DNA of 63,136 nt, taken from the NCBI GenBank assembly GCA_024636855.1, contig JAGXGG010000073.1, positions 1 through 63,136 of the forward strand, given 5' to 3'. Positions 13,341 through 60,607 of the stretch are shown in pieces. Position numbers and translations under genes: made by a program. The notes under the pieces are model-generated. The model saw nothing but the letters and a program-made list of their open reading frames with translations. It had not been told where the DNA came from and did not search any database. The DNA is from Ignavibacteriota bacterium. Lineage in GTDB: Bacteria > Bacteroidota > Ignavibacteria > Kapaibacteriales > UBA2268. The first letter of the stretch is position 1, and each line of letters begins with the position of its first letter.

Positions 13341-13455
13341 CGGACACTGCGTGTCCTCTGAGTGACGCGTTTCTTTTTGGCTCTGGAGACTGCCACGTCG
13401 CTTCGCTTCTCGCAGTGACATAATCTAATTGAGGTTTGGGGGATTTGGAGACGTA

Positions 13456-31263: not shown

Positions 31264-34155
31264 ATGAAAACATTAGTTACTTCTTTAATTATAATAATGA
31301 GTCTTCAGTTAAGTGCTACTGACAAGGATTTTTTCCTCCGCCAGAAAGAATCTGCACATCCTACTCCTTCGCCTTCTGCTATAAAGGAGTTCAATAAATA
31401 TCAATACAAAATACCTTATAAAATACAAGGCGAATCAAAGTTCTTCAATATGGCTCCATCAGTTGATGAGGGCAATTCGCAAGGTCAACCTACACAAAAC
31501 GAATCTAGTATAGCGGTTAACCCGAACAATCCTAATATAGTAATATCTTCAGCTGTTGATTATAGAGATAACTCGTCTACTTGGGTTTATATCTCTACAG
31601 ATGGTGGTAGAACTTGGGAAAACAAAAACTTAGGCAAAGCAAATGGATGGCGTTCATCTAATGACCCATCAGTTATGTTCGACAATGATGGTACTGGTTA
31701 TCTGGTTCACGGGGCTTTCCCTGCAAATGGTAGCGGCGAGAATGGAGTTTATTTGAATAAATCTACTGATGGTGGTATAACTTGGGGTGATCACATACCA
31801 GTAATTGAGCATAAATTACCAGATGACCCACTAACATATTTCGAAGATAAATATTACATAGAAGTAGATAACTCAGATGATTCTCCTTACAGAGGACATT
31901 TATATATCCCATGGAAGAGAGTTACTGAAGCTGATAGCGCTACACAAATAGTACTAGCTAAATCAACTGATAAAGGTGAAACTTGGTTAGAGCCAGTTAA
32001 TATTAGCGATAGATTAAGTGGTAGTTCTGAGGATACGACTTTCGGTCAGAGTTTCCCGTTAGTATCTACTGGACCTGAAGGGAATGTATATGCTGTATGG
32101 AATCATGGTATAAAGCACGCTGTTGGATTTAACAAATCTACTGATGGTGGTGTTACTTGGGGAACACCAGGTATAATCTACCAATACAATATATTTGGTA
32201 CTACTAAATTATTGTCCCAAGGTTGGAGACATACACTTAAGGGCAAAGTAAGAGCTGAAGCCTACCCTGTTATAAAAACTGATTACAGTAATGGCCCGAA
32301 TAAAGGTAATGTATATGTAGTTTGGGCGGCAGATAGTATCCCGAATATTTATTTCTCCAAATCTACAGATGAAGGTGAAACTTGGTCATCACCCAAAATA
32401 GTTCATGCTGAAACAAAAGGCGATCAATTCTGGACATGGTTGGGAGTTGACCCAACTAATGGAGATTTGGCTGTTATGTATCTTGATAGTAGAAATGACC
32501 CTGATAATATAATGGTAGAGTGCTATGTTAGTTACTCGTCTGACGGTGGTGAAACTTGGAAAGATAGACAAATTTCAGACGTACCTTCTGACATACGTAA
32601 CAACCCATTTTCAGGAAATGTATTCGCTGGAGATTATAGTGGACTCGATTTTTATGATGGTGTTATCTTCCCTAGTTGGGTAGATATGCGAAATACAGTT
32701 GGCCCAGATGGAAATATTAACGATAATGATGTTTACTCAGCTATCATCATAGTAGATCAACCATCACCAGTTGATGATTTTAAAGTTTCTGTAGTACCGA
32801 GTGACCCTACTCAACTCAATCTGAATTGGACTACAGTTTGGGAGAGTTCTTTCGGCAAACAACTAAATAAAGAAGATTTTGAATTACAAGTTTTCAGAAA
32901 CAATGAACTTTTACAAACTTTGAGTCCAGACTCTGATGGCTTAACAGATATGGGACTAACACCATATCAGAGATACGACTATAAGATAAGAGCGAAAAGT
33001 GATAATGATTCTAGTATATACAGAAATGCTTTCAGCTATGCTGGTGGGACAGAGAAACCAGATTCAGTTTTCATAACAAATATAGAAACTTATTCTGATG
33101 ATTTTGATCATGTATCAACTAGATTGTTCGTTATGATACCTAATAAAAGAGCTGATAAAGTAACACCACTTACTAAAGTCAAAAGATTAGAGGTTTTTGG
33201 TGACGGTAAATTTTTAAGAATTTTCCCTTTAGTTAACGAAGAGATAGGAACTACTGTAGCAGTAAACATAACTGAAGAATTGGGCAACTTTTCTAATCTA
33301 CGTTGCGTCCTTGTAGCAGGATATGAGAATCAAAATTTGGGCGAGCAGTTTAGTGATACTTCTAATAGTGTATTGGGTTATGAGGGTGAACTAATTAGTT
33401 TTGGTAAGGAGAGAATAATAAATTTCGAAGATAAAAATGAGACCTATTATACTCAAGAATGGGAAATAACAGAGGAGATAGCAGCTTCTCCGACCAATAG
33501 TATATCAACTTCTCCGAATGGAAATTATGATTCAAGAAGTGAATATACACTATATCTTCAACCAACATTGTTGGGTATCACAACAGGTATAAGTGATGTG
33601 GCGACGCACAAAATTACGTTCGACCAAATATGTGAGGTACATTCACTAGATAGTGCCGTTATTGAATCTAGTGTTGTTCTTAAAAATTGGTTTGTTGTAA
33701 AGAAATATAGTCTTGATGATTACGAGCAATGGAATGATGATAATCTGACAACAGAAGATTGGGTTAATTCAGAAGTAATACCTATAATTCAAGGTATGAC
33801 TGATATAGTTTATACTCGATTTAGATTAAAAACTAACGCAGTAGTAAATAAAAAGGGTTGGTATATAGATAACCTAACTTTTACTCCTTTCACTATCAAA
33901 TCTAGCGTAGAAGAAGAAATAGTATCTGAGTTAGGTGTATATCCTAATCCAACTTCTAATTACTTAAACATAGTTAATAAAGACAACTTGCCACTTGATA
34001 TTGAGCTAGTAGATATGAATGGTAATCCAATAATAATTCAAAAAGATTATTATGGAAAGTCATTAAATCTTACTAATTTGTCATCTGGTGTTTATATACT
34101 GAAGTTAAACTATAAAAATCATTCAAAAATCGAGAAAGTAACTATTATCAAATGA
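31264..34155 (+). CDS. Secreted sialidase-like (BNR/Asp-box) protein with T9SS sorting domain
   Basis: 963 residues, signal peptide at the N-terminus. About six Asp-box (S-x-D-x-G-x-T-W) repeats are visible: STDGGRTW, STDGGITW, STDKGETW, STDGGVTW, STDEGETW and SSDGGETW, predicting a six-bladed propeller. A fibronectin-like region and a beta domain follow, then the sorting domain (LGVYPNPTSNYLNIV... LSSGVYILKLNY). The active-site Arg triad of true sialidases could not be placed, so glycosidase activity is uncertain. Its stop overlaps the next start by 4 bp. Confidence 0.85.
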   Translation: MKTLVTSLIIIMSLQLSATDKDFFLRQKESAHPTPSPSAIKEFNKYQYKIPYKIQGESKFFNMAPSVDEGNSQGQPTQNESSIAVNPNNPNIVISSAVDYRDNSSTWVYISTDGGRTWENKNLGKANGWRSSNDPSVMFDNDGTGYLVHGAFPANGSGENGVYLNKSTDGGITWGDHIPVIEHKLPDDPLTYFEDKYYIEVDNSDDSPYRGHLYIPWKRVTEADSATQIVLAKSTDKGETWLEPVNISDRLSGSSEDTTFGQSFPLVSTGPEGNVYAVWNHGIKHAVGFNKSTDGGVTWGTPGIIYQYNIFGTTKLLSQGWRHTLKGKVRAEAYPVIKTDYSNGPNKGNVYVVWAADSIPNIYFSKSTDEGETWSSPKIVHAETKGDQFWTWLGVDPTNGDLAVMYLDSRNDPDNIMVECYVSYSSDGGETWKDRQISDVPSDIRNNPFSGNVFAGDYSGLDFYDGVIFPSWVDMRNTVGPDGNINDNDVYSAIIIVDQPSPVDDFKVSVVPSDPTQLNLNWTTVWESSFGKQLNKEDFELQVFRNNELLQTLSPDSDGLTDMGLTPYQRYDYKIRAKSDNDSSIYRNAFSYAGGTEKPDSVFITNIETYSDDFDHVSTRLFVMIPNKRADKVTPLTKVKRLEVFGDGKFLRIFPLVNEEIGTTVAVNITEELGNFSNLRCVLVAGYENQNLGEQFSDTSNSVLGYEGELISFGKERIINFEDKNETYYTQEWEITEEIAASPTNSISTSPNGNYDSRSEYTLYLQPTLLGITTGISDVATHKITFDQICEVHSLDSAVIESSVVLKNWFVVKKYSLDDYEQWNDDNLTTEDWVNSEVIPIIQGMTDIVYTRFRLKTNAVVNKKGWYIDNLTFTPFTIKSSVEEEIVSELGVYPNPTSNYLNIVNKDNLPLDIELVDMNGNPIIIQKDYYGKSLNLTNLSSGVYILKLNYKNHSKIEKVTIIK

Positions 34156-34678
34156 TAAGCAGTAATATAAATATTACGAAACCAACTTACATGGAAAAGG
34201 AATTTTCTCTTTTCAAAAAGGAGAAAGAACAGTCCTCTGGAAACAAAGAACTATCTGAAAGTGAGAAAAAGAGAGTTCAAGAGTTAAAGAAGATAGACCG
34301 TGAAGTTAGAACTCATGAGCAAGCCCATTTGGCGGCATCTGGTGGATTGGCTCGTGGAGGTGCATCATTTACATACACCAAAGGCTCTGACGGCAGAAAA
34401 ACGCTACAGGAGGCGAGGTTAGCATTGAGATTTCACCTGTCGAAGGTAAGCCTGAAGAAACAATACGCAGAATGCAGCAGGTAAAAAGAGCTGCCACAGC
34501 TCCTGCTAACCCTTCAAGTCAAGATAGGTCAGTAGCTGCAAAAGCATCAAGAGAAGAAGCTAAAGCTAGAGCCGAACTATTGAAACCGCAAGTTGACGAG
34601 AAAGTTGAAGATAAAAGCAGAATACTAAGTGTGTACAAAAATGAGTTCCAAGAAAGTACTTTCTCAGTAACTGCGTAA
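34152..34678 (+). pseudogene. SprA-related/CJM1_0395-type putative metalloprotease, frameshifted
   Basis: Two overlapping frames together give one protein. Frame 1 (34152-34484) carries the zinc motif HEQAH in REVRTHEQAHLAASGGLARGG and SFTYTKGSDGRK. From about 34404 the family sequence continues in another frame as TGGEVSIEISPVEGKPEETI then RRMQQVKRAATAPANPSSQDRSVAA, ending at 34678. Loss of one base in or beside the A5 run at 34397-34401 explains the break (AAATAC reduced to AAAAC restores a K-Y-A-T-G-G reading). Either a real disruption or a sequencing error; without the shift the family normally ends as frame 2 does. Confidence 0.85.
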
Positions 34679-35407: not shown

Positions 35408-36577
35408 ATGCTCCGAATTGCAATTTTACTATGTTTATTCTTAGTTGGTACTAGTACATACGCTCAAAGCGTATCGTATCCTAGTTTCGGCAAGGGAATA
35501 AACATTATGGCTGATGACTCATCAGCATCGATGAAAATACATGTACGAATCCAAAATCTGTTTGAAGCAGGATACGATGATTTCTTACAAAAGACAAATA
35601 CTAAATTTTTGGTAAGAAGACAGCGGCTGAAATTCGATGGTCACATGATTGACAAAGATTTAAGATATAAACTAGAACTAGGCTTTTCTAATAGAGACCA
35701 GGGTAATTCTAGAACTCGTCAATTTGGAAGTGATGGCTCTAATATCATTTTAGATGCCGTTGTAAAGTATTATCTATTCGAAGATTTTGATATTTGGTTT
35801 GGACAAACCAAATTACCTGGAAATAGAGAAAGGGTAATATCTTCTGCAGATATGCAATTTGTAGATCGTTCTCTTTTAAATGAGAATCTCAATATAGACC
35901 GAGATGCAGGTATTCAGATTAGATATAAATTTGGTACTGATTTCATTGTGAAGCCTACTTTTGCATTTACAACAGGTGAAGGAAGAAATATTACCGCTGA
36001 TAATGCTGGTGGATTTGCTTATACTTTCCACGCAGATTTTTTACCATTTGGTGAATTTGATGATTATGAGTCCTCAGACCATAATTTCAATGAGAATCAT
36101 AAATTAGTTATTGCAGCTGCATTTAGTTTCAATGATGCTACAAATAGGCAAGGTGGTCAAATAGGTAACTTTGTATTTGATACAAATGGTGCAGGGGTAC
36201 ATACTGATATGTTCACTTATTTTGCTGATTTACATTATAAATATAATGGTATAAGCATAATGGCAGAAGTAGCTAGAAAGAATATTGATAAAGAATTTAC
36301 TAATGCAACTAGAAAGTTTATAACAGGAGATGCACTCAATTTTCAGATTGGTTACTTATTTAGAAATTATTGGGAACTCGCTGCTAGATTTAGTCACGTA
36401 GAGCCAGATAATTCATTTTCGGATATCGATGAGCTTTCGGAATATACTTTTGGTATTTCTAAGTACTTATCTAAACATAAGCTTAAGATTCAATCTGATT
36501 TCTCTTATTTCGAAAATTTTGGATTAGTAGGCGAGGAAGATTTTAGATATAGGTTCCAAGTTGAACTGCAATTATAG
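35408..36577 (+). CDS. Outer-membrane porin, OprO/OprP-like
   Basis: 389 residues with a signal peptide (to about residue 20, SVSYP start of mature). Opening sequence FGKGINIMADDSSASMKIHVRIQ, LVRRQRLKFDGHMIDKDLRYKLELGFSNRD, and FDIWFGQTKLPGNRERVISSADMQFVDRS match the phosphate-selective porin O/P family. Alternating aromatic strands continue to the C-terminus (FRYRFQVELQL). Despite the family name the substrate cannot be inferred. It is a single gene with a promoter-like box. Confidence 0.85.
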   Translation: MLRIAILLCLFLVGTSTYAQSVSYPSFGKGINIMADDSSASMKIHVRIQNLFEAGYDDFLQKTNTKFLVRRQRLKFDGHMIDKDLRYKLELGFSNRDQGNSRTRQFGSDGSNIILDAVVKYYLFEDFDIWFGQTKLPGNRERVISSADMQFVDRSLLNENLNIDRDAGIQIRYKFGTDFIVKPTFAFTTGEGRNITADNAGGFAYTFHADFLPFGEFDDYESSDHNFNENHKLVIAAAFSFNDATNRQGGQIGNFVFDTNGAGVHTDMFTYFADLHYKYNGISIMAEVARKNIDKEFTNATRKFITGDALNFQIGYLFRNYWELAARFSHVEPDNSFSDIDELSEYTFGISKYLSKHKLKIQSDFSYFENFGLVGEEDFRYRFQVELQL

Positions 36578-36732
36578 AAGAAAAATTGTTATTTTGTCAA
36601 TTAATTGACCAAGCTAGAGTTTAATCCAATATTGAGTGTTACTTTTATCCTACAACGGTGTTATTACACTAGTAACGATTGGTTATTATCTATTAATAAA
36701 ATCTAAAATGACATAAGTCACGTAATGTATAT

Positions 36733-37158
36733 ATGAAACAAATAAAAATAACCTTATTCTTAGTATTGATTATGACTTTATTGTTTGCTTCGTGTTCCGA
36801 GAGCATTGTCTCGGAATGCGAACCAGACTTAAAAGTTGATAATCAAATGAAAGCGTCATTTAAAGAAATACAAGAGCAGGTCCTAACTCCTAGTTGTGCT
36901 ACTAGTGCGTGTCATGGTGGCTCTTTATTTAATTACCCAAAATTAGAAAAAGATAAGTCTTATGATAATATAGTAGGGAAAAATAACTTAGCTGGTAATA
37001 TGCCACTAATTGATCCTGGAAATAGTGCTAATAGTTTTTTATACAAGAAATTATTAGGTGAAGCTGGATGGTTAATGCCTTTAGGTGGCCAAAAGTTGAA
37101 TCAAAATGTTTTAGATTCTATAGCAGCTTGGATAGATAATGGTGCAGAAAACAATTAA
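36733..37158 (+). CDS. Cytochrome c-like lipoprotein with an unusual CX4CH motif
   Basis: 141 residues. Lipobox LFASC (Cys21). The haem-type segment is CATSACHGG with Cys55, Cys60 and His61, so four residues lie between the cysteines instead of two. Met90 and Met115 are possible axial ligands. The rest (NSANSFLYKKLLGEAGWLMPLGGQKL... IAAWIDNGA) matches planctomycete-type cytochrome c domains of Bacteroidota. First gene of an operon with YceI and DUF5777, a set often found together. Haem attachment at this motif is unproven. Confidence 0.78.
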   Translation: MKQIKITLFLVLIMTLLFASCSESIVSECEPDLKVDNQMKASFKEIQEQVLTPSCATSACHGGSLFNYPKLEKDKSYDNIVGKNNLAGNMPLIDPGNSANSFLYKKLLGEAGWLMPLGGQKLNQNVLDSIAAWIDNGAENN

Positions 37159-37172
37159 ATAGTGAGAAAATT

Positions 37173-37742
37173 ATGAAAAAATTAATAATCCTAGGATTAG
37201 TACTTATACTAACTACTAGTGTATTTGCAAAAGTAGAACACCAGGTAGATAAAAGTAAGAAAAATGTCGTAAAGTTTATATCTGATGCTCCTGTTGAAGA
37301 TTTTGAAGGAGTCACTAGCAGTATAGATGGATATATGCTTGGAGAAGTCGGAAACTTTGAGGGAACAGAGTTATACTTTGAGGTGCAATTGAATACTGTT
37401 GACACAGATATTGGACTCAGAAATAGACACATGAGAGAGAATTATCTTCACACTGATAAATATCCTTTAACAACGTATGAAGGCAAAATAATCGAATCTA
37501 AAAAAATAGATGATAAACACTATGAAGTAAAAGCAAAAGGTAAATTCGAAGTTCATGGGGTTTCCAAAGAGAAGATAATTGAAGCAGATATCTATGTATA
37601 TGACAATATATATCATGTAAAAACAAAATTTGTTGTAACATTGACAGATCATAAGATTGAAGTTCCTTCACTCATGCTTGTTAAAATTGATCCAGATATG
37701 GATTTGAGATTAGATTTTTTCTTGAAAGAGGTAACAAAGTAA
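37173..37742 (+). CDS. YceI family periplasmic protein
   Basis: 189 residues with a signal peptide. YceI beta-barrel features: NVVKFISDAPVEDFEGVTSSIDGYM, VDTDIGLRNRHMRENYLHTDKYPLTTYEG and KGKFEVHGVSKE. YceI proteins bind isoprenoid lipids such as polyprenyl chains in a lipocalin-like cavity. It lies 14 bp after the cytochrome-like gene and directly abuts the DUF5777 gene. Confidence 0.92.
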   Translation: MKKLIILGLVLILTTSVFAKVEHQVDKSKKNVVKFISDAPVEDFEGVTSSIDGYMLGEVGNFEGTELYFEVQLNTVDTDIGLRNRHMRENYLHTDKYPLTTYEGKIIESKKIDDKHYEVKAKGKFEVHGVSKEKIIEADIYVYDNIYHVKTKFVVTLTDHKIEVPSLMLVKIDPDMDLRLDFFLKEVTK

Positions 37743-38591
37743 ATGAAATATATTTCTACTTTATTAATAGCAATATTTATTCCTTCAATATTAGTTTCAC
37801 AGACGTGGCAAAGAAAAACAGAAGTAAAAGAACCACCATTACAATTATTTCAGAGTACTTATGCATATGCACTGCCGACTGCAGAAACTTTGAAACAAGG
37901 CGATTATCTTTATGGGATTTCTCATAGGTTTACTGTACCTGTATCTTCCGGATTTGAACAACTTTTCGGAATAGATGGCCCAGTTACAAATATGATGAAC
38001 TTGGGATATGGTCTGACTGATGATATTTTCTTGAACCTTGGTAGAAGTAATAGAGAATCACAATGGTGGTTCGAGACAAAGTATAAAGCAATAGAAATTA
38101 GGAATGAAACATTACCAATTTTAGTTAGCTTTTTGGGTGGAGTAGCATACTCAAGCAGACCTAACTTAGTAGGGGGGCAAAAAATAGAAGCAGGAAGAGA
38201 TTGGCATTTTTACGGCGTTGCTATTGTTAACACTATAATAGAAAAAAAGTTAGGCCTAGGAATAACACCCACGTTCTCTTATAACTCTCACTTACAATGT
38301 CCAGAAGTTGAGAACAGTGTTACACTAGGAGCTTATGCTGAATATTTTATTGATGATATGTATAGTATTCTAATAGAAACAAACCCAACTATAACTGGCT
38401 GGCGAAATCAATATGATTCCTATACTGTAGGATTCACTATGAATACAGGTGGTCATTTCTTCAAATTCTCAGTATCTAATAATACTGCTATCAATATACA
38501 GCAGTTCAATACTGGTGCCCAAAGCGCATTTTTAGGTAGTGGTGATAATAATAATTTACATTTCGGTTTTCAGATAACAAGAAATCTTTAA
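37743..38591 (+). CDS. DUF5777 family outer-membrane beta-barrel protein
   Basis: 282 residues with a signal peptide. YAYALPTAETLKQGDYLYGISHRFTVPVSSGFEQLFGIDGP is typical of DUF5777, as are the NLGYGLTDDIFLNLGRS and RDWHFYGVAIVNT segments; the C-terminus HFGFQITRNL is a closing strand. Function unknown; the family often follows YceI and a cytochrome-like lipoprotein. ATG overlaps no stop: it begins the base after the YceI stop. A terminator follows. Confidence 0.85.
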   Translation: MKYISTLLIAIFIPSILVSQTWQRKTEVKEPPLQLFQSTYAYALPTAETLKQGDYLYGISHRFTVPVSSGFEQLFGIDGPVTNMMNLGYGLTDDIFLNLGRSNRESQWWFETKYKAIEIRNETLPILVSFLGGVAYSSRPNLVGGQKIEAGRDWHFYGVAIVNTIIEKKLGLGITPTFSYNSHLQCPEVENSVTLGAYAEYFIDDMYSILIETNPTITGWRNQYDSYTVGFTMNTGGHFFKFSVSNNTAINIQQFNTGAQSAFLGSGDNNNLHFGFQITRNL

Positions 38592-38615
38592 AAACTCTAT
38601 CCTATTGTAAATCAG

Positions 38616-38647
38616 AAGTCTATTGCCATTCGCATTAGACTTTTTTC
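38616..38647 (+). terminator. Terminator of the cytochrome–YceI–DUF5777 operon
   Basis: Stem AAGTCTA / TAGACTT (38616-38622 with 38636-38642) around a 13-base loop, then a T run. Moderate strength because of the long loop. Confidence 0.65.
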
Positions 38648-38760
38648 TTGCCCAAACTATATTTAAGATTTAAAGATACCTTTATCTTTATTTCTATTTA
38701 GGAATTATTTAACTTTGTCTAAGATATTAATCAAAAGTGAATTTTTAATTAGAGAAAGCA

Positions 38761-38985
38761 ATAATAAATCCTAATACTGCTGTCTTAACAGAAAAAGGTC
38801 TCGCTAGTGAAATTGATTTAGTATTAACTCATACTATTGCAAGTAACATTAAACTGCAATTGGGTTACTCTTATTTAATTCCAACGGATGCATTAAAAAT
38901 TGTTCAAGGTAGACCAAATGGTGATAATTCACAATGGTAATAAGCAATGTTAAGAGTACCCCCAGAGTTATTCTCTTCTAACTAA
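38761..38985 (+). pseudogene. Remnant of an outer-membrane beta-barrel (alginate-export-like) gene, copy 1
   Basis: A 59-codon open stretch without an ATG reads LTEKGLASEIDLVLTHTIA, KLQLGYSYLIPTDALKIV and GRPNGDNSQW, then meets TAATAA; the same frame continues AMLRVPPELFSSN to a third stop at 38985. The pattern of alternating strands ending in an aromatic closing strand resembles the C-terminus of alginate-export-type porins. A stop 15 bp upstream shows the 5' part of the gene is gone. Copy 2 at 45599 has the same frame and the same stops. Confidence 0.75.
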
Positions 38986-39046
38986 CATTGTTCTTAAATA
39001 GCTAAATTCTTAGAAAAGAGGGCATTAAATGTCTGTTTTTTTTTAT
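38857..39046 (+). repeat. Long direct repeat, left copy
   Basis: 190 bp matching 45695-45884 without gaps and with about six differences, all transitions. It spans the end of the beta-barrel remnant and ends in a nine-base T run. The 96 bp immediately upstream also match, but far less well at the nucleotide level. Confidence 0.92.
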
Positions 39047-39062
39047 TTTAATGTAACTTTTC

Positions 39063-39070
39063 TTATTTTG
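39063..39070 (+). promoter_or_regulatory. Putative promoter box (TTATTTTG) of lectin gene 1
   Basis: One mismatch to TAnnTTTG, 63 bp before the ATG, within the phrase AACTTTTCTTAT that also precedes lectin gene 2. Weak evidence. Confidence 0.3.
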
Positions 39071-39133
39071 ATTTGTCACTTAAATTATAACTTATGGAAT
39101 AAACAACTAATTTTATGTTTAGGGGTAAACATT

Positions 39134-42100
39134 ATGAAAAAATTTATTTTGATCTTATTATTAAATTCTCTTCTTACTATTAGTTTGGCGGCACAGTTCA
39201 AAGTTGCACAAAGTAATTCAAATAATTATAGCTTTAACACTAAAGAAAACGCTCATCAACTAACTGATGGTTCAAATAGAATGCAAGCCACAGCTATTTG
39301 GAATGATATCTCTGTACCAGGATTTGAACAAATTGACTTGAACGTAAATTTCCTAGTAGAAGCTGAATATTATTTAGGGTATAAGGATAAAGAAGGGGCT
39401 GATGGAATTGCCTTCGTATTGCAATCAGCAGGTGATGATAAACTCGGTAGTTTAGGTGTAGGTATGGGATTCGCAGCGAACCCATATGATCGTAATAAGA
39501 AAGTCGCTCCTTCCTTAGGTATAGAGTTGGATACATGGTATAATCATCCTGGTTCTCCACCCGCCGTTGATACTAATCCAGAAGATCACTTCGGATATAT
39601 TGTAGATGGAAATTTGATGGATAGAGTAGGCTTAGATTTAGACGCAAAGGAAGATTTGTATGAAGGTCCATTAAATATTGAAGATAGTACGTTTCATTGT
39701 GTCAAATTCTTTTGGAACAGTAAAACTAAAGAGTTAACAAGTTACTTAGATGGACAATTAAGAAAAACTGAAGTTTTCAATGGAATTAATACTAGTACAT
39801 TGACGGCAATCATACAAACTGATCTTGTGTATTGGGGCTTTACAACTGGAACTGCTACTAGAGATAATATCCATATGGTTAGATTTGATGATATAACTAG
39901 AGATAATGAGGCCTGTTTTGTTGAGATATATAAAGAATCAGCATATATAGCTACAAACCCTAATTGTGGCTTCGAAGAAATTACAGTTTGTAAGAATAGC
40001 GATGAAAGTCAGGTTAATCTAGGTTTATCTACAACGAAACTTCCAATTGATAATATTATTTGGAAATCTATAAAAAATAAAACTTTTATTAATCCAATTA
40101 GTGCAACAAAAGATAGAGTTAATCTGAAAATGAGCGATAATGACATTATCGAAGTGACTGTTTATTATTCTAATGGCTGTATAGCTAAGGACGAATTTAT
40201 TATAAATACAAAGAATATCGAAATCGTAAAAAAAGTAGACACGTTGAGGTTATGTTCATCAGATAATGTAATTATTGATTTTGATTTGAAAATAGATGGG
40301 GAAATAGTTGATAATTACAATGATGTCAAATGGTATTGGTCAAATAGAGAATATTTAGTAAATCAAGGTAAATTAACAGATAAAGAACAAATTTATTTAG
40401 ACAATAGAACTACAGATACACTAACTTTCGAAGTTACTGCTGGAATTACTGATGATTTGATGAATATATGTACTGATACAAAAACTGTAACAGTAATTAT
40501 AGCTAGCTATTATTTTAAAGAGAAAATAACTTATTCTCCTTGTGCTGATACAGCATATATTCAATTTGAAGTTTATGAAGATGCAGCACTCACTATTCCT
40601 TTATCAAAAGAAAAGATCAAAAAAATGAGTTGGGTTTCACCTAAATCCCAAAATGATTTTATAAACGGTATCATACCAGATGGAATGGATGCAACCGTAG
40701 TAACTGAAGGCAAATACGACATAAAATTTGAACTAAAAAATGGTTGCTTTATTAGCAAATCAGTTTTTGCTGACTTTTCTAAAGATAATTTGAATTTACT
40801 ACCTTCGAAAATTGAACTTTGCTTAAATGATAGTGTTTCAGTAACTTCTAAAGTAAATGCTTCAAAATATCTATGGTCAACTGGAGAAACTACTAAAGCA
40901 ATTACTATTAAGGAAGAAGGTAAGTATTTTCTTGAAATCGAGACGTTTGCTGGTTGCAAATACTCAGATACACTTGAAGTAATAAAATTACCAGAGATAG
41001 AGTTTAATATAATAGGTGATTCAACGATATGTACAAATGGAGATTTCGTAACACTAAAATCGGATAAGAGTTTCGAAAGATATCTCTGGTCAACTGGTAG
41101 CACAGCTACTAATATAAAAGTAAATACACCTGGAGTTTATTGGTTAAAAGTTACGAATGAGAGTGGATGTACTGCTTACGATAGTATAAATGTAGTTTCT
41201 TTTGATTCACTATTTGTTAGAATAATTGGCAAAGGTGGTTGCAATATGGATTCAGTATTATTGAGCTACGAAACAAACTCCAAAGATTATACTTTAAAAT
41301 GGTCTAATGGAAGTATCTCAGATTCTATTTGGGTAAATACTCCTGCCATATATTCTGTTGAAATAATAGATAATATTTCTGGTTGTACAAGAAAAGCATC
41401 ACAAAATGTTGAAATAACAAATGGATTCTACCCAGAATTAATGGGTGAAATGAGTATATGCGAAGGTACGGAAACTGAACTTGAAGTAATTGGTTGTTTG
41501 GATTGTAAGTATCAATGGTCAGAAGGTGGCGTACAATCGAAATCTACATTTGATAGCAATTCAAATGGTTATGTAGTTGTATCCAAATCACTTAATTGTT
41601 TAGATACTTTGTACTATGATATAAAAGTCGAAGCTCTCCCAGCTCCTAAAATACAAGGTATTAAGAAAGTGTGTTTACCATACAGCACACTACTTTATTT
41701 AAATGATGATTATAAGTCCGTCACCTGGTCAAATGGACAAAATACAAAAAGCATAGAGGCAAAAGAAAGTGGTGAATATTCAGTAATTGTTGAAACCGAG
41801 CTCGGTTGTTTAGGATATGATACAGTGTATGTTGAAGCAATAGATATAATAAATGAAATTGATTATAAGGACACAGTTGATTTTGGGAAGGTCTATTGGA
41901 ATAATGATGTCAATTTCAAAGTTGTTTTAAAATATGATGATTTTAAATCTGTTCATCTAACTTCATATTATAATGGGGCTCTAAATAATTTTGAAATTAA
42001 TAATTATAAAGAACTAGATTTCATAATTAGACCTAATGAGATTGGAGAATATATTGATAGTATAGAATTCGTTGTAGAAGAACCTTGTGTAGATACTTTC

Positions 42101-42745
42101 TATATATATATTGTCGGAGCTGTCTATACTAAAGTTGTTTTAGAATTACCAAAAATAATTGCTTATCCTGGAGACTTTTCCAATATACCTATAAAGTTGT
42201 ATAGTAATATAAATATTAAAGATAGTTATAATTTCGATATGAACTACGAAAGTGAAATAGTTTATTTTAAGGGTAAATATAACCCTTTGGGTTTCAACAA
42301 AGCTTTGAATTTGAATGCGGCTGAACAAATTATTGAAAATCCTGTTGGTACTGTTCTATTAACTGATTTAGCTGAAAAGCCACTTACAGTAGATACATTG
42401 TTATGGGATAATAAGTATATTGAGAGTGAAATCATTAATGGCTGGATTAGATTAGACACTATATGCACTCACGAATATAGAGTTGTAAATATAGATTATG
42501 ATAATATTTCTACATTCTATGATTTAAGTAAAGATAGGTTAATAATTCAAAAGGTTGGTATTTCAGAAAATTCTATCATAGATGTTATTATAACTGATTT
42601 GAATGGAGTAACAGTATATAAAGAGAATACTACAATTACTGATATTGAAGAATTTGATTTATCAAAATTTGTAGCAGGTGTTTATTTTGTAAGAATAGAA
42701 ATGAATGGATTCAGCAATCTTTATAAATTTGTAAAGGTTTATTAA
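39134..42745 (+). CDS. L-type (legume-like) lectin-domain secreted protein with T9SS sorting domain, paralogue 1
   Basis: 1,204 residues from the ATG at 39134, which gives an ideal signal peptide MKKFILILLLNSLLTISLAA; the frame is open 105 bp further up, but that part covers the repeat tail and is not expected to be coding. The lectin domain (about 21-270) has ADGIAFVLQSAGDDKLGSLG, PSLGIELDTWYN and YWGFTTGTATRDN. Several Ig-like repeats follow with recurring YLWSTGETTK / YLWSTGSTAT phrases. The end (EEFDLSKFVAGVYFVRIEMNG) is a sorting domain. Likely a surface glycan-binding protein. Confidence 0.88.
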   Translation: MKKFILILLLNSLLTISLAAQFKVAQSNSNNYSFNTKENAHQLTDGSNRMQATAIWNDISVPGFEQIDLNVNFLVEAEYYLGYKDKEGADGIAFVLQSAGDDKLGSLGVGMGFAANPYDRNKKVAPSLGIELDTWYNHPGSPPAVDTNPEDHFGYIVDGNLMDRVGLDLDAKEDLYEGPLNIEDSTFHCVKFFWNSKTKELTSYLDGQLRKTEVFNGINTSTLTAIIQTDLVYWGFTTGTATRDNIHMVRFDDITRDNEACFVEIYKESAYIATNPNCGFEEITVCKNSDESQVNLGLSTTKLPIDNIIWKSIKNKTFINPISATKDRVNLKMSDNDIIEVTVYYSNGCIAKDEFIINTKNIEIVKKVDTLRLCSSDNVIIDFDLKIDGEIVDNYNDVKWYWSNREYLVNQGKLTDKEQIYLDNRTTDTLTFEVTAGITDDLMNICTDTKTVTVIIASYYFKEKITYSPCADTAYIQFEVYEDAALTIPLSKEKIKKMSWVSPKSQNDFINGIIPDGMDATVVTEGKYDIKFELKNGCFISKSVFADFSKDNLNLLPSKIELCLNDSVSVTSKVNASKYLWSTGETTKAITIKEEGKYFLEIETFAGCKYSDTLEVIKLPEIEFNIIGDSTICTNGDFVTLKSDKSFERYLWSTGSTATNIKVNTPGVYWLKVTNESGCTAYDSINVVSFDSLFVRIIGKGGCNMDSVLLSYETNSKDYTLKWSNGSISDSIWVNTPAIYSVEIIDNISGCTRKASQNVEITNGFYPELMGEMSICEGTETELEVIGCLDCKYQWSEGGVQSKSTFDSNSNGYVVVSKSLNCLDTLYYDIKVEALPAPKIQGIKKVCLPYSTLLYLNDDYKSVTWSNGQNTKSIEAKESGEYSVIVETELGCLGYDTVYVEAIDIINEIDYKDTVDFGKVYWNNDVNFKVVLKYDDFKSVHLTSYYNGALNNFEINNYKELDFIIRPNEIGEYIDSIEFVVEEPCVDTFYIYIVGAVYTKVVLELPKIIAYPGDFSNIPIKLYSNINIKDSYNFDMNYESEIVYFKGKYNPLGFNKALNLNAAEQIIENPVGTVLLTDLAEKPLTVDTLLWDNKYIESEIINGWIRLDTICTHEYRVVNIDYDNISTFYDLSKDRLIIQKVGISENSIIDVIITDLNGVTVYKENTTITDIEEFDLSKFVAGVYFVRIEMNGFSNLYKFVKVY

Positions 42746-42770
42746 TACTGTTGAATTAATCAAAAGTAAA

Positions 42771-42798
42771 AGCAGACATTAATTGTCTGCTTTTTTTT
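42771..42798 (+). terminator. Terminator between the two lectin genes
   Basis: A strong stem AGCAGACA / TGTCTGCT around TTAAT, followed by a long T run that also contains the TTG assigned to the next promoter. Confidence 0.88.
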
Positions 42799-42827
42799 GA
42801 ATTGAACTTTTCTTATATTTATTTTTG
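42797..42827 (+). promoter_or_regulatory. Bacteroidota-type promoter of lectin gene 2
   Basis: TTG (42797-42799), a 20-bp spacer and TATTTTTG (42820-42827): the best -33/-7 pair in the window. The -33 element overlaps the terminator T run of the upstream gene. Start codon 69 bp downstream. Confidence 0.5.
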
Positions 42828-42896
42828 TATTAGAATAAAGCTAAATAAACTATTTTGTTTAGTTTAATCGTAATTTAAATTTTCAGGGTACTTGAA

Positions 42897-45599
42897 ATGA
42901 AGAAATATTTAACTATTTTTATATTCAATTTTATATTTACGTTAAGTTTAACAGCCCAATTTAAAGTTGTTCAAAGTAACCCTAACAACTATTCATACGA
43001 CCCAATTACAAAGATTCATAAGTTAACAGACGGTACTAATCGTATGCAGGCGACTGTAATCTGGAATGATATGAACTTCCCAGGTTATGAAAAAATTAAT
43101 TTACAAGAAGACTTTATAATTGAAGCTGAAATGTATTTTGGCTTCAAAGACAAAGAAGGTGCTGATGGTATAGCGTTAGTGTTACAAACTCAAGGTGACA
43201 ACGCAATAGGTAGCCTAGGAGTGGGTATGGGTTTTGCAATGAATCCATATGATGGTAACAAACGAGTTTATCCTTCATTTGGGGTAGAAATTGATACATG
43301 GTATAATTATGCAGGTTCTCCTCCACCTGTGGACAGAGTTAATGCAGATCACATTTCTTATGTTATTAATGGCGATATGTATGATTTACTTGGTAATGAT
43401 GAATTTGCAAAATATGATTATAATGAAAAAACACATAAAGATATTGAGGACGGTAAGTTTCATTGTGTAAAATATCATTGGGATTCTGAATTGGAGATAT
43501 TATCCGTGTATTTTGACGGCCAGCTAAGAAAATCTGATAATCTTCAAGATGGTTTAAAGATGAAATTATCTCAGTTACTGAAATCAAATGAAGTTTGGTG
43601 GGGGTTTGCAACAGGGACAGCTACTAGAGACAATGTTCACATGCTTATTTTTAAAAATATATTACGTGGAGACGAAGCCACAATTACAAATGTTAATACA
43701 AATACAAGCACCCTAATTGGTGAATTTTGTGAAAAAACAATCTCTCCATGTGATAATAATATCGAATTTAGTTTAGATGAGACGGGTTTACAAATTGTCG
43801 ATACTAAATGGGAATTAGTTCCGCCAATTTATGATAAGGTTATTTTCTCAAATAATAATAAAAGCATAAGTGATGTAATAAGTGAAGACAAAAAATATAT
43901 AGTAGAAGTAACTTATTCTGATGGTTCTAAAGCAAAAGATTCTATTTTTGCTAAATATTTAAACTTAGAAGTCATGATACCAGACACTTTGTACCTATGT
44001 CAAAATTCAACTTCAAAAATCACTGGTCAATTATTTGTAAATGGAGAGCTGGAAAACAATAATAATAAGATATTATGGAATTGGAGACCGTTGGGTTTAT
44101 TCAATAAGATTGAAGATAATATTGCTTATTTAAAATCTCAAATTCCAGATACAACTATTTCTTGTGATATAGTCTATCAAGTATCCGATTCAGTAACAAA
44201 ATGTGTGTTAAGTAAACAAGTTGTACTAGTTAACAGTACTCAAGATTTCGAATTAGCAATAGATTCTCTACCGTGTATGAATGAGAAAACAGTTAGTATA
44301 GTTGGTTTAGACGGAAACCAAATAAATTTGAATCAGATTAAAACTATATTGTGGAAGTTAAATGATAAATTAATTGATTCAGAAAATCATATTTCTTTGG
44401 ATTCTGTTGTAGTTGACGATATCGGTCTATTAGAAATTACTATAGAAACACATAGTGGATGCATTTATAATATCAGTAAATATATTTATAACTCTTCTAA
44501 AAATAACAATCAAAAAATATTACCTAAAATTAGAACTGATTATTGTACTAATGATACATTAGTATTAAGCCCAATTAGAGAATTTGATTATTACTTATGG
44601 AATAACACTATTGAATCAAAAGACTTAATAATAACACTACAGGGACTTTATTATTTATATGCAATTGATTCTACAACAGGTTGTACATTCAGAGATACAA
44701 TTAATATTAGTTTCCATGATTACCCAGATTATGTTGTTGATGATTATAATATCTTAATTTGTAAAGGAGAAACTAAGCAAATAGATCTAAAAACTAACAG
44801 TAATAATATTGTGCGTTGGTTTGACGAGTTAGGTAATTTATTATCTGAAGAACAAGTACTATTAGTTTCAGAGCCTTCTAAAGTATATGCTGAAATAGAG
44901 AATGAATTTGGGTGTAAAGTGACAACAGAATTAATAAGTATAGAGAGTTCAAGTACAAATAATATCTATGAATTATCTAATATTTATGGTGGAAATGAGG
45001 TTTATTTTGAAGGAATAAAAAGAAATAGATTATATGGAAAAGAGATACTAATTAAAAACTTAATTGATTCTTCATATACTATTCAATTATTAGAATTGGA
45101 ATCAAAAATTGATTTTTCAATACCTAGTTCACAGTTTCCAATTCAACTTACACCATATAGTATCAACACCATTTCAGTTTTTTTATACTCAAGAAATAAT
45201 GAGTCTAAACAAGATGTTATATATAATGATAACGAATGTAAATCTGAACTAATTAGACTAAAAGCCGAATTTGAACAAGAGACTTATAAGTTCGTAGATA
45301 AATGTGGTATGACTTGGTATATTGATGAAGCAAATAGTATTAATTTGAACGAACCTTTCCCAAATCCAGCTAAAGATTGGATTAACATTAGCTATAATTC
45401 TGATCAAGATATTGATATTTCTTCATTAATTAAAGTCTCATTGATGGATCAATTTGGAAATAAATTGAATTCAAAACCTTTAATATCTAAAAATTTAATT
45501 GAGATAGATTTATCTTCTGACTTGAGTTCAGGTGTTTACTTTGTGAAATTAGAATATTTGAATAATGTTAAATTATTCAAATTTACAAAGTTGAGATAA
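42897..45599 (+). CDS. L-type lectin-domain secreted protein with T9SS sorting domain, paralogue 2
   Basis: 900 residues, signal peptide then QFKVVQSNPNNYSYD, paralogous to the QFKVAQSNSNNYSFN start of the preceding gene. The lectin domain has ADGIALVLQTQGDNAIGSLG, PSFGVEIDTWYN and WWGFATGTATRDN. It is about 300 residues shorter because it has fewer Ig-like repeats. The end (EPFPNPAKDWINI... LSSGVYFVKLEYLN) is a sorting domain. Its stop codon (45597-45599) directly meets the second beta-barrel remnant. Confidence 0.88.
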   Translation: MKKYLTIFIFNFIFTLSLTAQFKVVQSNPNNYSYDPITKIHKLTDGTNRMQATVIWNDMNFPGYEKINLQEDFIIEAEMYFGFKDKEGADGIALVLQTQGDNAIGSLGVGMGFAMNPYDGNKRVYPSFGVEIDTWYNYAGSPPPVDRVNADHISYVINGDMYDLLGNDEFAKYDYNEKTHKDIEDGKFHCVKYHWDSELEILSVYFDGQLRKSDNLQDGLKMKLSQLLKSNEVWWGFATGTATRDNVHMLIFKNILRGDEATITNVNTNTSTLIGEFCEKTISPCDNNIEFSLDETGLQIVDTKWELVPPIYDKVIFSNNNKSISDVISEDKKYIVEVTYSDGSKAKDSIFAKYLNLEVMIPDTLYLCQNSTSKITGQLFVNGELENNNNKILWNWRPLGLFNKIEDNIAYLKSQIPDTTISCDIVYQVSDSVTKCVLSKQVVLVNSTQDFELAIDSLPCMNEKTVSIVGLDGNQINLNQIKTILWKLNDKLIDSENHISLDSVVVDDIGLLEITIETHSGCIYNISKYIYNSSKNNNQKILPKIRTDYCTNDTLVLSPIREFDYYLWNNTIESKDLIITLQGLYYLYAIDSTTGCTFRDTINISFHDYPDYVVDDYNILICKGETKQIDLKTNSNNIVRWFDELGNLLSEEQVLLVSEPSKVYAEIENEFGCKVTTELISIESSSTNNIYELSNIYGGNEVYFEGIKRNRLYGKEILIKNLIDSSYTIQLLELESKIDFSIPSSQFPIQLTPYSINTISVFLYSRNNESKQDVIYNDNECKSELIRLKAEFEQETYKFVDKCGMTWYIDEANSINLNEPFPNPAKDWINISYNSDQDIDISSLIKVSLMDQFGNKLNSKPLISKNLIEIDLSSDLSSGVYFVKLEYLNNVKLFKFTKLR

Positions 45600-45823
45600 T
45601 TATTGACCCAACAACTTCAGAATTAACAGAGAAAGGGCTTGCTAGCGAAATAGATCTAGTATTAACTCATACATTATCTGGCGATGTTAAATTCCAATTG
45701 GGTTACTCTTATTTAATTCCAGCGGATGCATTAAAAATTGTTCAAGGTAGACCAAATGGTGATAATTCACAATGGTAATAAGCAATGTTAAGAGTACCCC
45801 CAGAGTTATTCTCTTCTAATTAA
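45599..45823 (+). pseudogene. Remnant of an outer-membrane beta-barrel (alginate-export-like) gene, copy 2
   Basis: The same reading as copy 1: LTEKGLASEIDLVLTHTLSG, KFQLGYSYLIPADALKIV and GRPNGDNSQW, followed by TAATAA and AMLRVPPELFSSN. No start codon. It follows lectin gene 2 with no spacer and is in a different frame. In the first 96 bp the two remnants differ at many codons, yet the conserved residues are mostly kept by synonymous changes. Confidence 0.75.
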
Positions 45824-45884
45824 TATTGTTCTTAAATAGCTAAACTCTTAGAAAAGAAGGCATTAAATGTCTATTTTTTTTTAT
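45695..45884 (+). repeat. Long direct repeat, right copy
   Basis: Matches 38857-39046 at a constant offset of 6,838 bp, about 97% identical with no gaps. Ends in the same nine-base T run, which reaches the stop codon of the convergent gene. Confidence 0.92.
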
Positions 45885-46843
45885 TACCTTTTCAAAATTT
45901 TAATTATTTGATTATTGATAAATAAGTAATATACACCACTTGGTTCGTTACTGATATCTAGTTGCCTAATATCGTTCATTTTCGTATCAATTAATGTTCT
46001 ACCTAAATTATTTATGAGTTTAACATTTAGAATTTTAGTGTCAGTATTTACATTAATAATACCATTAGAAGGATTCGGATAAACTCTAAATTTATTCATT
46101 TTCTCATCTTCAACGCTTATAAAGTTACAACCACTCATAACTTCAATTATAGAATTACAATTCTTAGAATTATTATTAAAATCAAATTCTGCATAGTTTC
46201 TTAAGAAACAGATACCTATAACTGCACAAGCTGAAAGTTTAGGATTATTGCTTATTCTAAGTTTTGATTTTTCTATTTTTTTCCCAGTAAATTTGAAACC
46301 ATCAACGGAACGAAGAGATTCTAATCCATGTAAAGCTTCCAAATTATTATTATCTGTTATTTCTAAATCACCTTTTAACGAATCTAGATTATGTATTCCC
46401 CATAGATCAGTTAATTTATCATTTGATTTGATATAAAAGTACCCCACTTCATCAATGTGAGAATACGATTCAGCACCAATTTGAATTAAACCACTTAGTC
46501 CATTTAAACTAGTTATCGAGTTATTATTTATTATAGCAATCCCAAAGCCTACCGAAGATATATTATGCAGGCCTATTAGACTAATCAAATTAGTATTCTT
46601 AACTATTAGTACACCACTTAGTTTGCTAATATTTCCCAAGGGTTCTAACGAGATAATTTCACCATTAAGAGGTTCAATGATTATAGAACCATTTAAATTA
46701 GAACAATTAGGGTATTCCAACGCAAATTTATCAATATCATTCTGACTATAAAAGTAGAGTGTATCTCCTTCGAAACATTCGTTTGAATAAAGATTTGAAA
46801 ATGACATTGTTAGAAGAGTAAGAAGTAGTAAAAGATGTTTCAT
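45884..46843 (-). CDS. Secreted receptor-L-domain-like (leucine-rich) protein with T9SS sorting domain
   Basis: 319 residues from the Met that opens the signal peptide MKHLLLLLTLLTMSFSNLYS; a start 30 bp earlier would add a charged leader and is less likely. The body has repeat phrases typical of receptor-L domains: ISLEPLGNISKLSGVLIVKN, LISLIGLHNIS, ITSLNGLSGL, LTDLWGIHNLDSLKGDLEI, LEALHGLESL. C-terminal sorting domain FRVYPNPSNGIINVN... EPSGVYYLFINN. Probably a surface adhesin-like protein. Its 3' end touches the right direct repeat. Confidence 0.8.
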   Translation of the reverse strand: MKHLLLLLTLLTMSFSNLYSNECFEGDTLYFYSQNDIDKFALEYPNCSNLNGSIIIEPLNGEIISLEPLGNISKLSGVLIVKNTNLISLIGLHNISSVGFGIAIINNNSITSLNGLSGLIQIGAESYSHIDEVGYFYIKSNDKLTDLWGIHNLDSLKGDLEITDNNNLEALHGLESLRSVDGFKFTGKKIEKSKLRISNNPKLSACAVIGICFLRNYAEFDFNNNSKNCNSIIEVMSGCNFISVEDEKMNKFRVYPNPSNGIINVNTDTKILNVKLINNLGRTLIDTKMNDIRQLDISNEPSGVYYLFINNQIIKILKR

Positions 46844-46902
46844 AGCATTTCCTTTGAATTGTTTTACTTTCAAATTATTAAATAATTCGCTTTAATACAA
46901 AT

Positions 46903-47442
46903 TTACTTCACTCTATCAGGGTTGTCTTTTGCGAATTGGGACCAGTTTGAAACTTTCTTTTTATTAGAGTTTCCTAGCTTCAGGCAATGACATATTGCAA
47001 TTGCTAGTGCATCAGTCGAATCTAAAAATTCTGGAGTCTCAGTTATACTTAGTATTTTCTTGACCATAAACTGTACTTGCTCTTTACCCGCTTTGCCTTT
47101 ACCAGTTACTGATTTTTTGATTTCATTTGGAGAATACTCAAAAACAGGTAACTCATTTTGTGTAGCTGAGAGTATAGCGACAGCCCTAGCATGGGATAAC
47201 TTTACTAATGATTGTACATTTTTAGCATAGAATATAGTCTCGAAAGCACTTATATCAGGATTAGTCCGCTTAATAATCCTATCAACGGAATCATTGAGTA
47301 TTTTTAATCGACCATTGAAATCTTCAGATTGTATCTTTGCTTTTATTACTCCATATTCGACAAGTTTGAAACTATTCCCCTCCATATCTACAACACCATA
47401 GCCGCAGATAACAGAACCGGGGTCTATACCAATCACCCTCAT
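46903..47442 (-). CDS. ruvC: Crossover junction endodeoxyribonuclease RuvC
   Basis: 179 residues. The four acidic catalytic residues are in place: Asp7 (VIGIDPGS), Glu68 (SAFETIF), Asp141 and Asp144 (DSTDALAIAICH). It resolves Holliday junctions with RuvAB, which are not in the window. Its ATG overlaps the yebC stop by one base (TAATG), so the genes form an operon. Confidence 0.95.
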   Translation of the reverse strand: MRVIGIDPGSVICGYGVVDMEGNSFKLVEYGVIKAKIQSEDFNGRLKILNDSVDRIIKRTNPDISAFETIFYAKNVQSLVKLSHARAVAILSATQNELPVFEYSPNEIKKSVTGKGKAGKEQVQFMVKKILSITETPEFLDSTDALAIAICHCLKLGNSNKKKVSNWSQFAKDNPDRVK

Positions 47443-48194
47443 TATAAATCCAACTGATCAAAAACGGAATCATCTATATCAGCATTATTATAAACATTCT
47501 GTACGTCATCTACTTCTTCCATTTTATCTAAGAACAGCATTACTTTCTTTGCAATAGAAACATCCGTTATCTTTACCTTGTTCTTAGCTATATATTCTAA
47601 TTGGCTATCTTCTATTTCGAAGATACTTTTGTCGAAATAGTCATTGACTGTGTTGTAATCCGTCATTGCACAGATTATTCTAGATGTTTCTGGGCTATAC
47701 TCTACGTCTTCCCCACCAGCTTCAAGTGCTTCCATCATCAAATCCTCTTCGCTTGCTCCTGAAGTCTTTATAGTAACAACTCCCTTTCTATCGAAATTCC
47801 AAGCAACTGAGTTAGTCTCACCCATATTCCCATCATATTTGCTAAAGGAAGCTCTAACCTCTGAAACTGTTCTATTCTTATTATCTGAGATAGTTTCTAC
47901 TATTATAGCAACACCATTTGGTCCATAACCTTCGTATCTATACTCTTCGAAGGCTTGACCTTCCAACTCACCTGTACCTTTTTTAATAGCACGTTCGATG
48001 TTGTCTTTAGGCATATCATTATCACGAGCCTTTTTGACAGCCAAACGTAGGCGAGGGTTCATATCAGTATCACCACCACCTTCACGAGCAGCTATAGTTA
48101 TCTCCTTACCCATCTGAGTGAATATTTTTCCTTTTAGGGCGTCTTGTCTTCCTTTTCTATGCTTTATATTGGCCCATTTACTATGTCCTGCCAT
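47442..48194 (-). CDS. YebC/PmpR family protein (TACO1-like)
   Basis: 250 residues, the usual size. MAGHSKWANIKHRKGRQDA, KKGTGELEG and YEGYGPNGVAIIVE are family hallmarks. YebC proteins act as transcription regulators in some bacteria and help ribosomes through proline-rich stretches in others. First gene of the yebC-ruvC operon; a TATTTTTG box lies 46 bp upstream. Confidence 0.95.
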   Translation of the reverse strand: MAGHSKWANIKHRKGRQDALKGKIFTQMGKEITIAAREGGGDTDMNPRLRLAVKKARDNDMPKDNIERAIKKGTGELEGQAFEEYRYEGYGPNGVAIIVETISDNKNRTVSEVRASFSKYDGNMGETNSVAWNFDRKGVVTIKTSGASEEDLMMEALEAGGEDVEYSPETSRIICAMTDYNTVNDYFDKSIFEIEDSQLEYIAKNKVKITDVSIAKKVMLFLDKMEEVDDVQNVYNNADIDDSVFDQLDL

Positions 48195-60593: not shown

Positions 60594-60607
60594 TATGGGA
60601 ATAGAAC

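What the first reader, a model, noticed from the sequence alone, without database searches (positions are those of the whole stretch)
38857..45884. A 6.8-kb module bracketed by long direct repeats around two lectin genes
Seen: 190 bp at 38857-39046 and 45695-45884 align without gaps at a constant 6,838-bp offset, about 97% identical with only transitions as differences. Between them lie two paralogous secreted L-type lectin proteins. Inference: repeats of this length and identity could recombine, deleting the pair as a circle or amplifying it, giving strain-level variation of a surface glycan-binding locus.
Basis: partly seen in the sequence, partly recalled or inferred. Interest (0 to 1): 0.75.

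Follow-up and report, generated by a model that had tools for sequence, protein, structure and literature searches.

The report
Twin relics of a lost porin gene
The long repeats around two secreted lectin genes in this Ignavibacteria-type bacterium are two copies of the broken-off end of an outer-membrane porin gene, left where a nitrite-reductase operon was lost, and not the ends of a purpose-built mobile lectin module.

Summary
The repeat is real: 38857-39046 and 45695-45884 match at 184 of 190 positions; the 6 differences are transitions. Weaker homology runs 97 bp further 5' (288 bp at 88%). Each copy is the last 76-81 codons of an alginate-export-type porin gene plus its terminator region, with the same two in-frame stop codons. 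All three other genomes held for the genus carry that gene whole, ending a nirK-FGE-SCO1-porin operon between the DUF5777 and lectin genes. The window genome lost about 3.9 kb at a TTTT[A/C]ATTA microhomology. No relative shows the repeat pair, and lectin number does not follow it: G002 and G003 have one lectin here; G001 has both, lectin 2 beside ruvC. The 5' parts of the tails come from different, formerly functional porin lineages; only the 3' 190 bp share a recent ancestor, as expected of gene conversion. The repeats are relics that exchanged sequence. Excision or amplification of the lectins is possible but not shown. This is an ordinary kind of rearrangement.

The parts
37743..38591 (+). 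DUF5777 beta-barrel gene, conserved left flank of the locus
   Evidence: PF19089 146.2 bits; syntenic in G001, G002, G003 at 87.6-91.1% aa
38592..38751 (+). Remaining intergenic and leader region of the lost nirK gene; ends at the deletion junction (microhomology TTTT[A/C]ATTA, 38743-38751)
   Evidence: Aligned to the nirK upstream regions of G001, G002 and G003 and to G001 and G003 at the junction
38743..38985 (+). Relic tail A: 3' end of the Alginate_exp porin gene with no 5' part, two in-frame TAA stops at 38938-38943 (a third in-frame TAA lies at the junction itself), ancestral stop at 38983-38985
   Evidence: Matches residues 340-420 of the G003 porin; alignment; Pfam of the intact gene
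38857..39046 (+). Copy 1 of the 190-bp repeat: porin 3' end, intergenic stretch and terminator region
   Evidence: 184/190 identical to copy 2
39011..39045 (+). Terminator-like hairpin and T run at the end of repeat copy 1
   Evidence: Fold -7.7 kcal/mol, z -1.92, hence weak on its own, and not listed by the terminator scan; a T run stands at the same place in G001, G002 and G003
39134..42745 (+). Lectin 1: 1203-aa L-type lectin protein with T9SS tail; orthologue of the single lectin at this place in G002 and G003
   Evidence: PF18483, TIGR04183. The ATG at 39029 reported by the ORF list lies inside the repeat; 39134 aligns with the relatives' starts
42768..42794 (+). Strong terminator hairpin between the two lectin genes
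   Evidence: (-14.6 kcal/mol, z -5.43)
42897..45599 (+). Lectin 2: 900-aa L-type lectin protein with T9SS tail; orthologue on G001 contig C89, 83% identical
45598..45823 (+). Relic tail B: 3' end of a second, diverged porin lineage, joined at the lectin-2 stop codon
   Evidence: Matches residues 345-420 of the G003 porin
45695..45884 (+). Copy 2 of the 190-bp repeat
45884..46843 (-). Recep_L-domain T9SS protein gene not found at this locus in the relatives; its stop codon abuts repeat copy 2 (start at 46843 chosen by eye; longest ORF runs to 46873)
   Evidence: PF01030 and PF18962; its N-terminal 255 residues have no match at E <= 1e-8 in G001-G003; one weak match to residues 82-180 in G001, E 4e-6
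46903..47442 (-). ruvC, conserved right flank
   Evidence: PF02075; found after the lectin in G002 and G003 and after lectin 2 on G001 contig C89

Best explanation
The direct repeats are two truncated, pseudogenised 3' ends of an alginate-export-type porin gene with its terminator region. They were left by recombination at microhomologies that removed a nirK-FGE-SCO1-porin operon from this locus. Shown by sequence: the intact operon sits at this place in all three relatives; its loss here leaves a junction at TTTT[A/C]ATTA; there is a second tail between lectin 2 and a Recep_L gene; both tails carry the same two nonsense codons. Inferred: the two tails come from different porin alleles, most simply because an incoming segment (tail A, lectin 1, lectin 2) replaced the front of a resident allele whose porin end (tail B) was followed by the Recep_L gene. 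Later gene conversion made the 3' 190 bp alike. The lectin pair is a passenger of this history and not a unit defined by the repeats, although such repeats remain an ordinary possible substrate for RecA-dependent deletion or duplication. The confidence given is for relic plus conversion; the allele-replacement step taken alone is nearer 0.4.
For: Intact 420-aa porin as last gene of the operon in 3 of 3 other genus genomes, while the window genome keeps only its last 81 and 76 codons. Operon identity, tested on the G003 copy: TIGR02376 359.4 bits against a cut-off of 296.3; Alginate_exp PF13372 53.4 bits against 25.2, SCO1-SenC, FGE-sulfatase. No nirK at E <= 1e-40 in the window genome, against 3 of 3 other genus members; a search with the G003 NirK gave only weak matches there (best E 0.07). 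Microhomology at junction A. Relative to G001, about 1.3 kb (tail B plus the Recep_L gene) lies extra between lectin 2 and ruvC. Tail mosaic: 0 of 96 upstream sites against 11 sites in the 3' coding part where A and B agree and all three relatives agree on another base. In trees A and B group at 98% bootstrap over the 3' part, but B groups with G003 (69%) over the 5' part. Of the 29 differences upstream 18 are at third codon positions (p = 0.0014), so both lineages diverged while functional. Lectin 2 is closer between the window and G001 (518 of 724 shared amino acids use the same codon) than seven flanking genes are (930 of 1752), p = 1e-17, although the window groups with G003 on the flanks: a sign of horizontal exchange of lectin 2.
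Against: The grouping of tail A with G001/G002 and of tail B with G003 rests on few sites (3 nucleotide sites for, 2 against). ruvC of the window is nearer to G001 (84.4%) than to G003 (80.7%), which the resident-allele story does not predict. Lectin 1 (first 99 codons) is nearer to G003 (76.4%) than to G001 (72.4%), although the story imports it along with lectin 2. No genome with the proposed resident allele (porin followed by the Recep_L gene) was found. The window genome is a 96.4% complete draft, so absence of nirK elsewhere in it is not proven. Adjacency of lectins 1 and 2 in G001 is inferred across a contig gap. Separate deletion and insertion events would also give the picture, though the two breakpoints lie only about 5 codons apart in a 420-codon gene. 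The terminator inside the repeat is weak by folding and was not listed by the terminator scan.
Confidence: 0.85

Rival explanations
1. Recombination-mediated variable module: the 190-bp repeats are the active ends of a lectin unit that is deleted as a circle or amplified by RecA-dependent recombination in living populations.
For: Length and identity (190 bp, 97%, longest exact run 97 bp) are of a size at which homologous recombination is generally possible (recalled, not tested); the 3' part shows past exchange between the copies.
Against: The repeat pair is not seen in 3 of 3 relatives, and lectin number varies there without it. No deletion or circle junction is seen in the assemblies held. 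The lectins are old diverged paralogues and not a recently amplified unit.
Confidence: 0.12
2. Campbell-type integration: a circle carrying tail B, lectin 1 and lectin 2 integrated by a single crossover into a chromosomal tail A followed by the Recep_L gene, which would give exactly tail-lectins-tail-RecL.
For: The order of parts is what a single crossover inside the tail would leave; the two tail breakpoints nearly coincide (residues 340 and 345); the shared part of the tails is the 3' part.
Against: Needs the chromosome to have had a truncated tail and no lectins beforehand, whereas 3 of 3 relatives have a lectin after the porin. No relative of lectin 2 in viral contigs (pattern scan) or plasmids, and no integrase or transposase among the 23 window proteins scanned with Pfam.
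Confidence: 0.15
3. Assembly artefact: in this 110-contig assembly, two strains' contigs were joined through the near-identical repeat.
For: The window lies in a fragmented draft assembly (110 contigs), and a 97-bp exact run could bridge short k-mers.
Against: The junction of lectin 2 with tail B and that of tail B with the Recep_L gene lie at the edges of the repeat, where no long shared word is seen; the six differences spread over the repeat; the flanks on both sides are syntenic with the relatives.
Confidence: 0.07
4. A mobile element or repeat family (MITE, insertion-sequence end, cassette recombination site) that happens to contain porin sequence.
For: Two discrete copies with similar ends.
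Against: Only 2 matches in the whole genome; no inverted repeat of 30 bp or more in 36000-48000; the same DNA is the 3' end of a complete gene in relatives.
Confidence: 0.02

Closest known systems
Deletion scars and truncated pseudogenes left by illegitimate recombination at microhomologies in bacterial genomes (general knowledge, recalled)
   Same: Gene 3' end without its 5' end, junction at a short AT-rich microhomology, nonsense codons in the remnant
   Different: Two such scars of the same gene flank one gene pair, and their 3' parts have been homogenised
Gene conversion between paralogous sequences in one bacterial genome (general knowledge, recalled)
   Same: Sharp change from diverged to near-identical sequence inside a homologous stretch
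   Different: The partners are two gene relics and not two functional gene copies; direction of conversion unknown
Duplication and expansion between direct repeats (Escherichia coli 7-kbp lac duplication system, PMC2656507; only the search listing with the start of the abstract was seen)
   Same: Repeated DNA as a possible substrate for homologous recombination over about 7 kb
   Different: No duplication or expansion is observed here; the intervening segment is single copy in the assembly
Proteins with an L-type lectin domain and a T9SS sorting tail (PF18483 with TIGR04183)
   Same: Both lectin proteins meet the curated cut-offs of both families
   Different: No departure from the families was noticed; two paralogues stand in tandem

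Membership tests
Truncated pseudogene of an Alginate_exp-family porin | Clear homology to the 3' part of an intact gene in relatives | tested here: met
   Residues 340-420 and 345-420 of the G003 porin at 79% and 82% identity; the intact G003 gene is PF13372 at 53.4 bits, cut-off 25.2
Truncated pseudogene of an Alginate_exp-family porin | Missing 5' part and in-frame nonsense | tested here: met
   No further porin match at E <= 1 in the genome; two TAA codons replace the relatives' Ile/Leu-Trp in both copies
Gene-conversion tract | Shared derived sites confined to a tract with sharp borders | tested here: met
   0 in 96 sites upstream, 11 within the coding part of the tract; Fisher p = 2e-10 for the density of differences
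Gene-conversion tract | Direction and donor identified | tested here: inconclusive
   Only weak hints from 96 bp (69% bootstrap)
Recombination-mediated excision or amplification module | Alternative junctions or copy-number variants tied to the repeats | tested here: inconclusive
   None seen in 4 assemblies of the genus; the proper test, reads of the population, was not available
Mobile element or cassette array | Transposase or integrase, or repeat copies elsewhere in the genome | tested here: not met
   2 copies only; none of the 23 window proteins scanned with Pfam is a transposase or integrase; the remaining frames of the 67 were not scanned
L-type lectin domain protein (PF18483) | Score above Pfam's gathering cut-off | tested here: met
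   93.1 and 99.6 bits against 78.3
T9SS type A cargo (TIGR04183) | C-terminal sorting domain above the cut-off | tested here: met
   31.0 and 24.2 bits against 23; with Pfam's PF18962 lectin 2 passes (35.8 against 27) and lectin 1 does not (23.1); actual secretion not testable here
Copper nitrite reductase NirK (TIGR02376), for the operon lost here | Equivalog score above the cut-off in the relatives' gene | tested here: met
   359.4 bits against 296.3 for the G003 gene; over the cut-off in G001, G002 and G003 and no match in the window genome

The most novel reading that the evidence does not exclude
The lectin pair is a recombinationally mobile unit: it moves between related Ignavibacteria as DNA that inserts by homology in the porin tail (by single crossover of a circle or by allele replacement), displacing the nitrite-reductase operon, so that a population would trade nitrite respiration for glycan-binding surface proteins at one shared chromosomal site.
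Probability: 0.12. Interest if true: 0.5.

Novelty: new member of a known kind. Interest (0 to 1): 0.25.

Why it matters
It replaces a guess about a lectin-shuffling module with a readable history: an outer-membrane and nitrite-reductase operon was lost at this place, and its debris now looks like designed repeats. It warns that long direct repeats in draft genomes can be gene relics homogenised by conversion. It also documents apparent loss of nirK in one of four sampled genomes of a genus, with the scar still visible, and probable exchange of a lectin gene between species.

Tried and rejected
Mobile-element reading: the repeat has no further copy in the genome, no inverted repeat of 30 bp or more in the region and no transposase or integrase among the 23 window proteins scanned. 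Structured-RNA reading: no Rfam match at gathering score in the whole window; three matches below gathering score in the locus, none over the repeats. tRNA-targeted insertion: no tRNA in the window. Phage or plasmid carriage of lectin 2: no match in viral contigs or plasmids. Simple tandem duplication of tail A: rejected as the sole cause because the 5' parts of A and B differ at 29 of 97 sites, 18 of them third codon positions, so they diverged as working genes. Promoter scan was uninformative: 55 sites found, 56.1 expected. A family search with lectin 1 (23 of 54 genomes at E <= 1e-20, not more than 12 candidates scored per genome) hit mostly its C-terminal half outside the genus and did not bear on the repeats. 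Literature: searches gave no paper on this locus in the papers listed (12 of 19, 12 of 55, 4 of 4, 4 of 4); no paper was opened. Homology-facilitated illegitimate recombination (listing only) is a recalled mechanism and not cited as evidence.
Full report
Observation. It is not chance; the longest exact run is 97 bp. Homology goes on to the left at a lower level, so the whole homologous stretch is about 288 bp at 88%. The change in density is sharp: 29 differences in 97 bp on the left against 6 in 191 bp on the right (Fisher p = 2e-10). The stretch has no third copy in the 3.1-Mb, 110-contig genome at E <= 0.001.

What the repeat is. Read in frame, both copies encode the end of an outer-membrane porin. 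Searched in 100 genomes (the window's own and 99 relatives), the 59-residue peptide finds matches at E <= 0.01 in 13 of 100, the window genome included; apart from the window the strong ones are in the three other genus members G001, G002 and G003, one each, inside open frames of 423-424 codons. The DNA of the repeat also matches in those three (78%, 69% and 75%); at most 8 candidates per genome were scored there, and one further 25-bp match in G042 (E 0.003) was not pursued. The intact G003 protein is an Alginate_exp porin (PF13372, 53.4 bits, cut-off 25.2). A search of the window genome with it finds only the two tails, covering residues 340-420 and 345-420. The non-coding part of the repeat is the porin's terminator region, with a T run at the same place in the relatives; the hairpin is weak by folding alone (z -1.92 and -1.57) and the terminator scan did not list it.

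What is missing. In G002 and G003, and in G001 up to its contig end, the order is DUF5777 gene, four genes, lectin, with ruvC next in G002 and G003. In G003 the four are a copper nitrite reductase with a cytochrome c domain (TIGR02376, 359.4 bits, cut-off 296.3), an FGE-sulfatase-domain protein, an SCO1/SenC protein and the porin; in G001 and G002 the gene sizes and order are alike and nirK is over the family cut-off, but the two middle genes were not scanned there. The window has DUF5777, tail A, lectin 1, lectin 2, tail B, a Recep_L-domain gene with a T9SS tail, and ruvC. Homology to the nirK leader runs to 38751 and porin homology starts at 38743; the overlap is a TTTT[A/C]ATTA microhomology. 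From the alignment coordinates the loss is about 3.9 kb. A family-level search finds nirK in 5 of 54 genomes: all three other genus members, two further genomes, and not the window genome, which is a 96.4% complete draft.

The second tail. Compared with G001 contig C89, where lectin 2 is followed by ruvC after 16 bp, the window has about 1.3 kb more: tail B and the Recep_L gene. Tail B begins at the lectin-2 stop codon and ends at the Recep_L stop codon. The N-terminal 255 residues of the Recep_L protein match 3 of 54 family genomes at E <= 1e-8, the window's own included and no other genus member; with the whole protein there is one weak match to its Recep_L part in G001 (E 4e-6), the other genus matches being mainly to the shared sorting tail.

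History of the tails. In the coding 3' part, 11 sites show A and B agreeing against all three relatives, among them changes in both nonsense codons; in the 96 sites upstream there are none. Trees reflect this: A with B at 98% over the 3' part, B with G003 at 69% over the 5' part. The 5' differences are mostly at third codon positions (18 of 29, p = 0.0014), so the two porin lineages diverged while under constraint. The simplest reading is two different porin alleles, each cut at nearly the same place, whose 3' parts were later made alike by gene conversion. That the cuts lie about 5 codons apart suggests one recombination event between aligned alleles and not two unrelated ones; this is inference.

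The lectins. Both are PF18483 lectins with T9SS tails by TIGR04183 (lectin 1 misses Pfam's own tail cut-off), and old paralogues. Lectin 1 is the orthologue of the lectin at this place in G002 and G003; G001 has the start of a lectin 1 at the end of contig C374 and lectin 2 on C89. Eight flanking gene alignments group the window with G003 and G001 with G002 (unrooted four-taxon tree without support values). Against that background lectin 2 is unexpectedly close between window and G001: 518 of 724 shared amino acids use the same codon, against 930 of 1752 in seven flanking genes (p = 1e-17). The test treats codons as independent, so the p-value is optimistic. Lectin 1 is less close to G003 than the flanks are (324 of 612 against 1122 of 1855, p = 0.001). 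Exchange of lectin genes between species is therefore likely, but in relatives the lectin differences exist without the repeat pair.

Results against this reading. The allele assignment of the tails is weak: three nucleotide sites for and two against. ruvC next to the junction is nearer to G001 than to G003. The first 99 codons of lectin 1 are nearer to G003 than to G001. No genome with the proposed resident allele was found.

Verdict. The repeats are relics of a lost operon that have undergone conversion. Excision or amplification of the lectins is possible in principle, undemonstrated, and not needed to explain the lectin differences seen between species.

Noticed in passing
13241-13341 and 27501-27601 (inverted): A roughly 100-bp dispersed repeat with 16 full or partial matches in the window's genome; 3 of the 8 copies aligned have an extra ~50 bp in the middle. 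It resembles REP-type elements of transposase origin (recalled, not tested).
   Followed up: partly
59250-61960: Tandem pair of DUF4139 proteins with 72-83% nucleotide identity over 300-bp stretches; in the stretches fetched, G002 and G003 show a single such gene.
   Followed up: no
34152-34484: Frame of 110 aa matching the first 83 residues of a 175-aa protein found in G001, G002 and G003; it looks truncated or frameshifted in the window.
   Followed up: no
42768-42842: A terminator plus leader upstream of lectin 2 resembles the stretch upstream of lectin 1 (71% over 59 bp), suggesting that the ancient lectin duplication carried the terminator with it.
   Followed up: partly
L026:13169-17320 (G003 contig C73): nirK, FGE-sulfatase-domain, SCO1 and alginate-export porin genes in tight order; gene sizes and order are alike in G001 and G002. 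What the FGE-domain and porin partners do for nirK was not tested.
   Followed up: no
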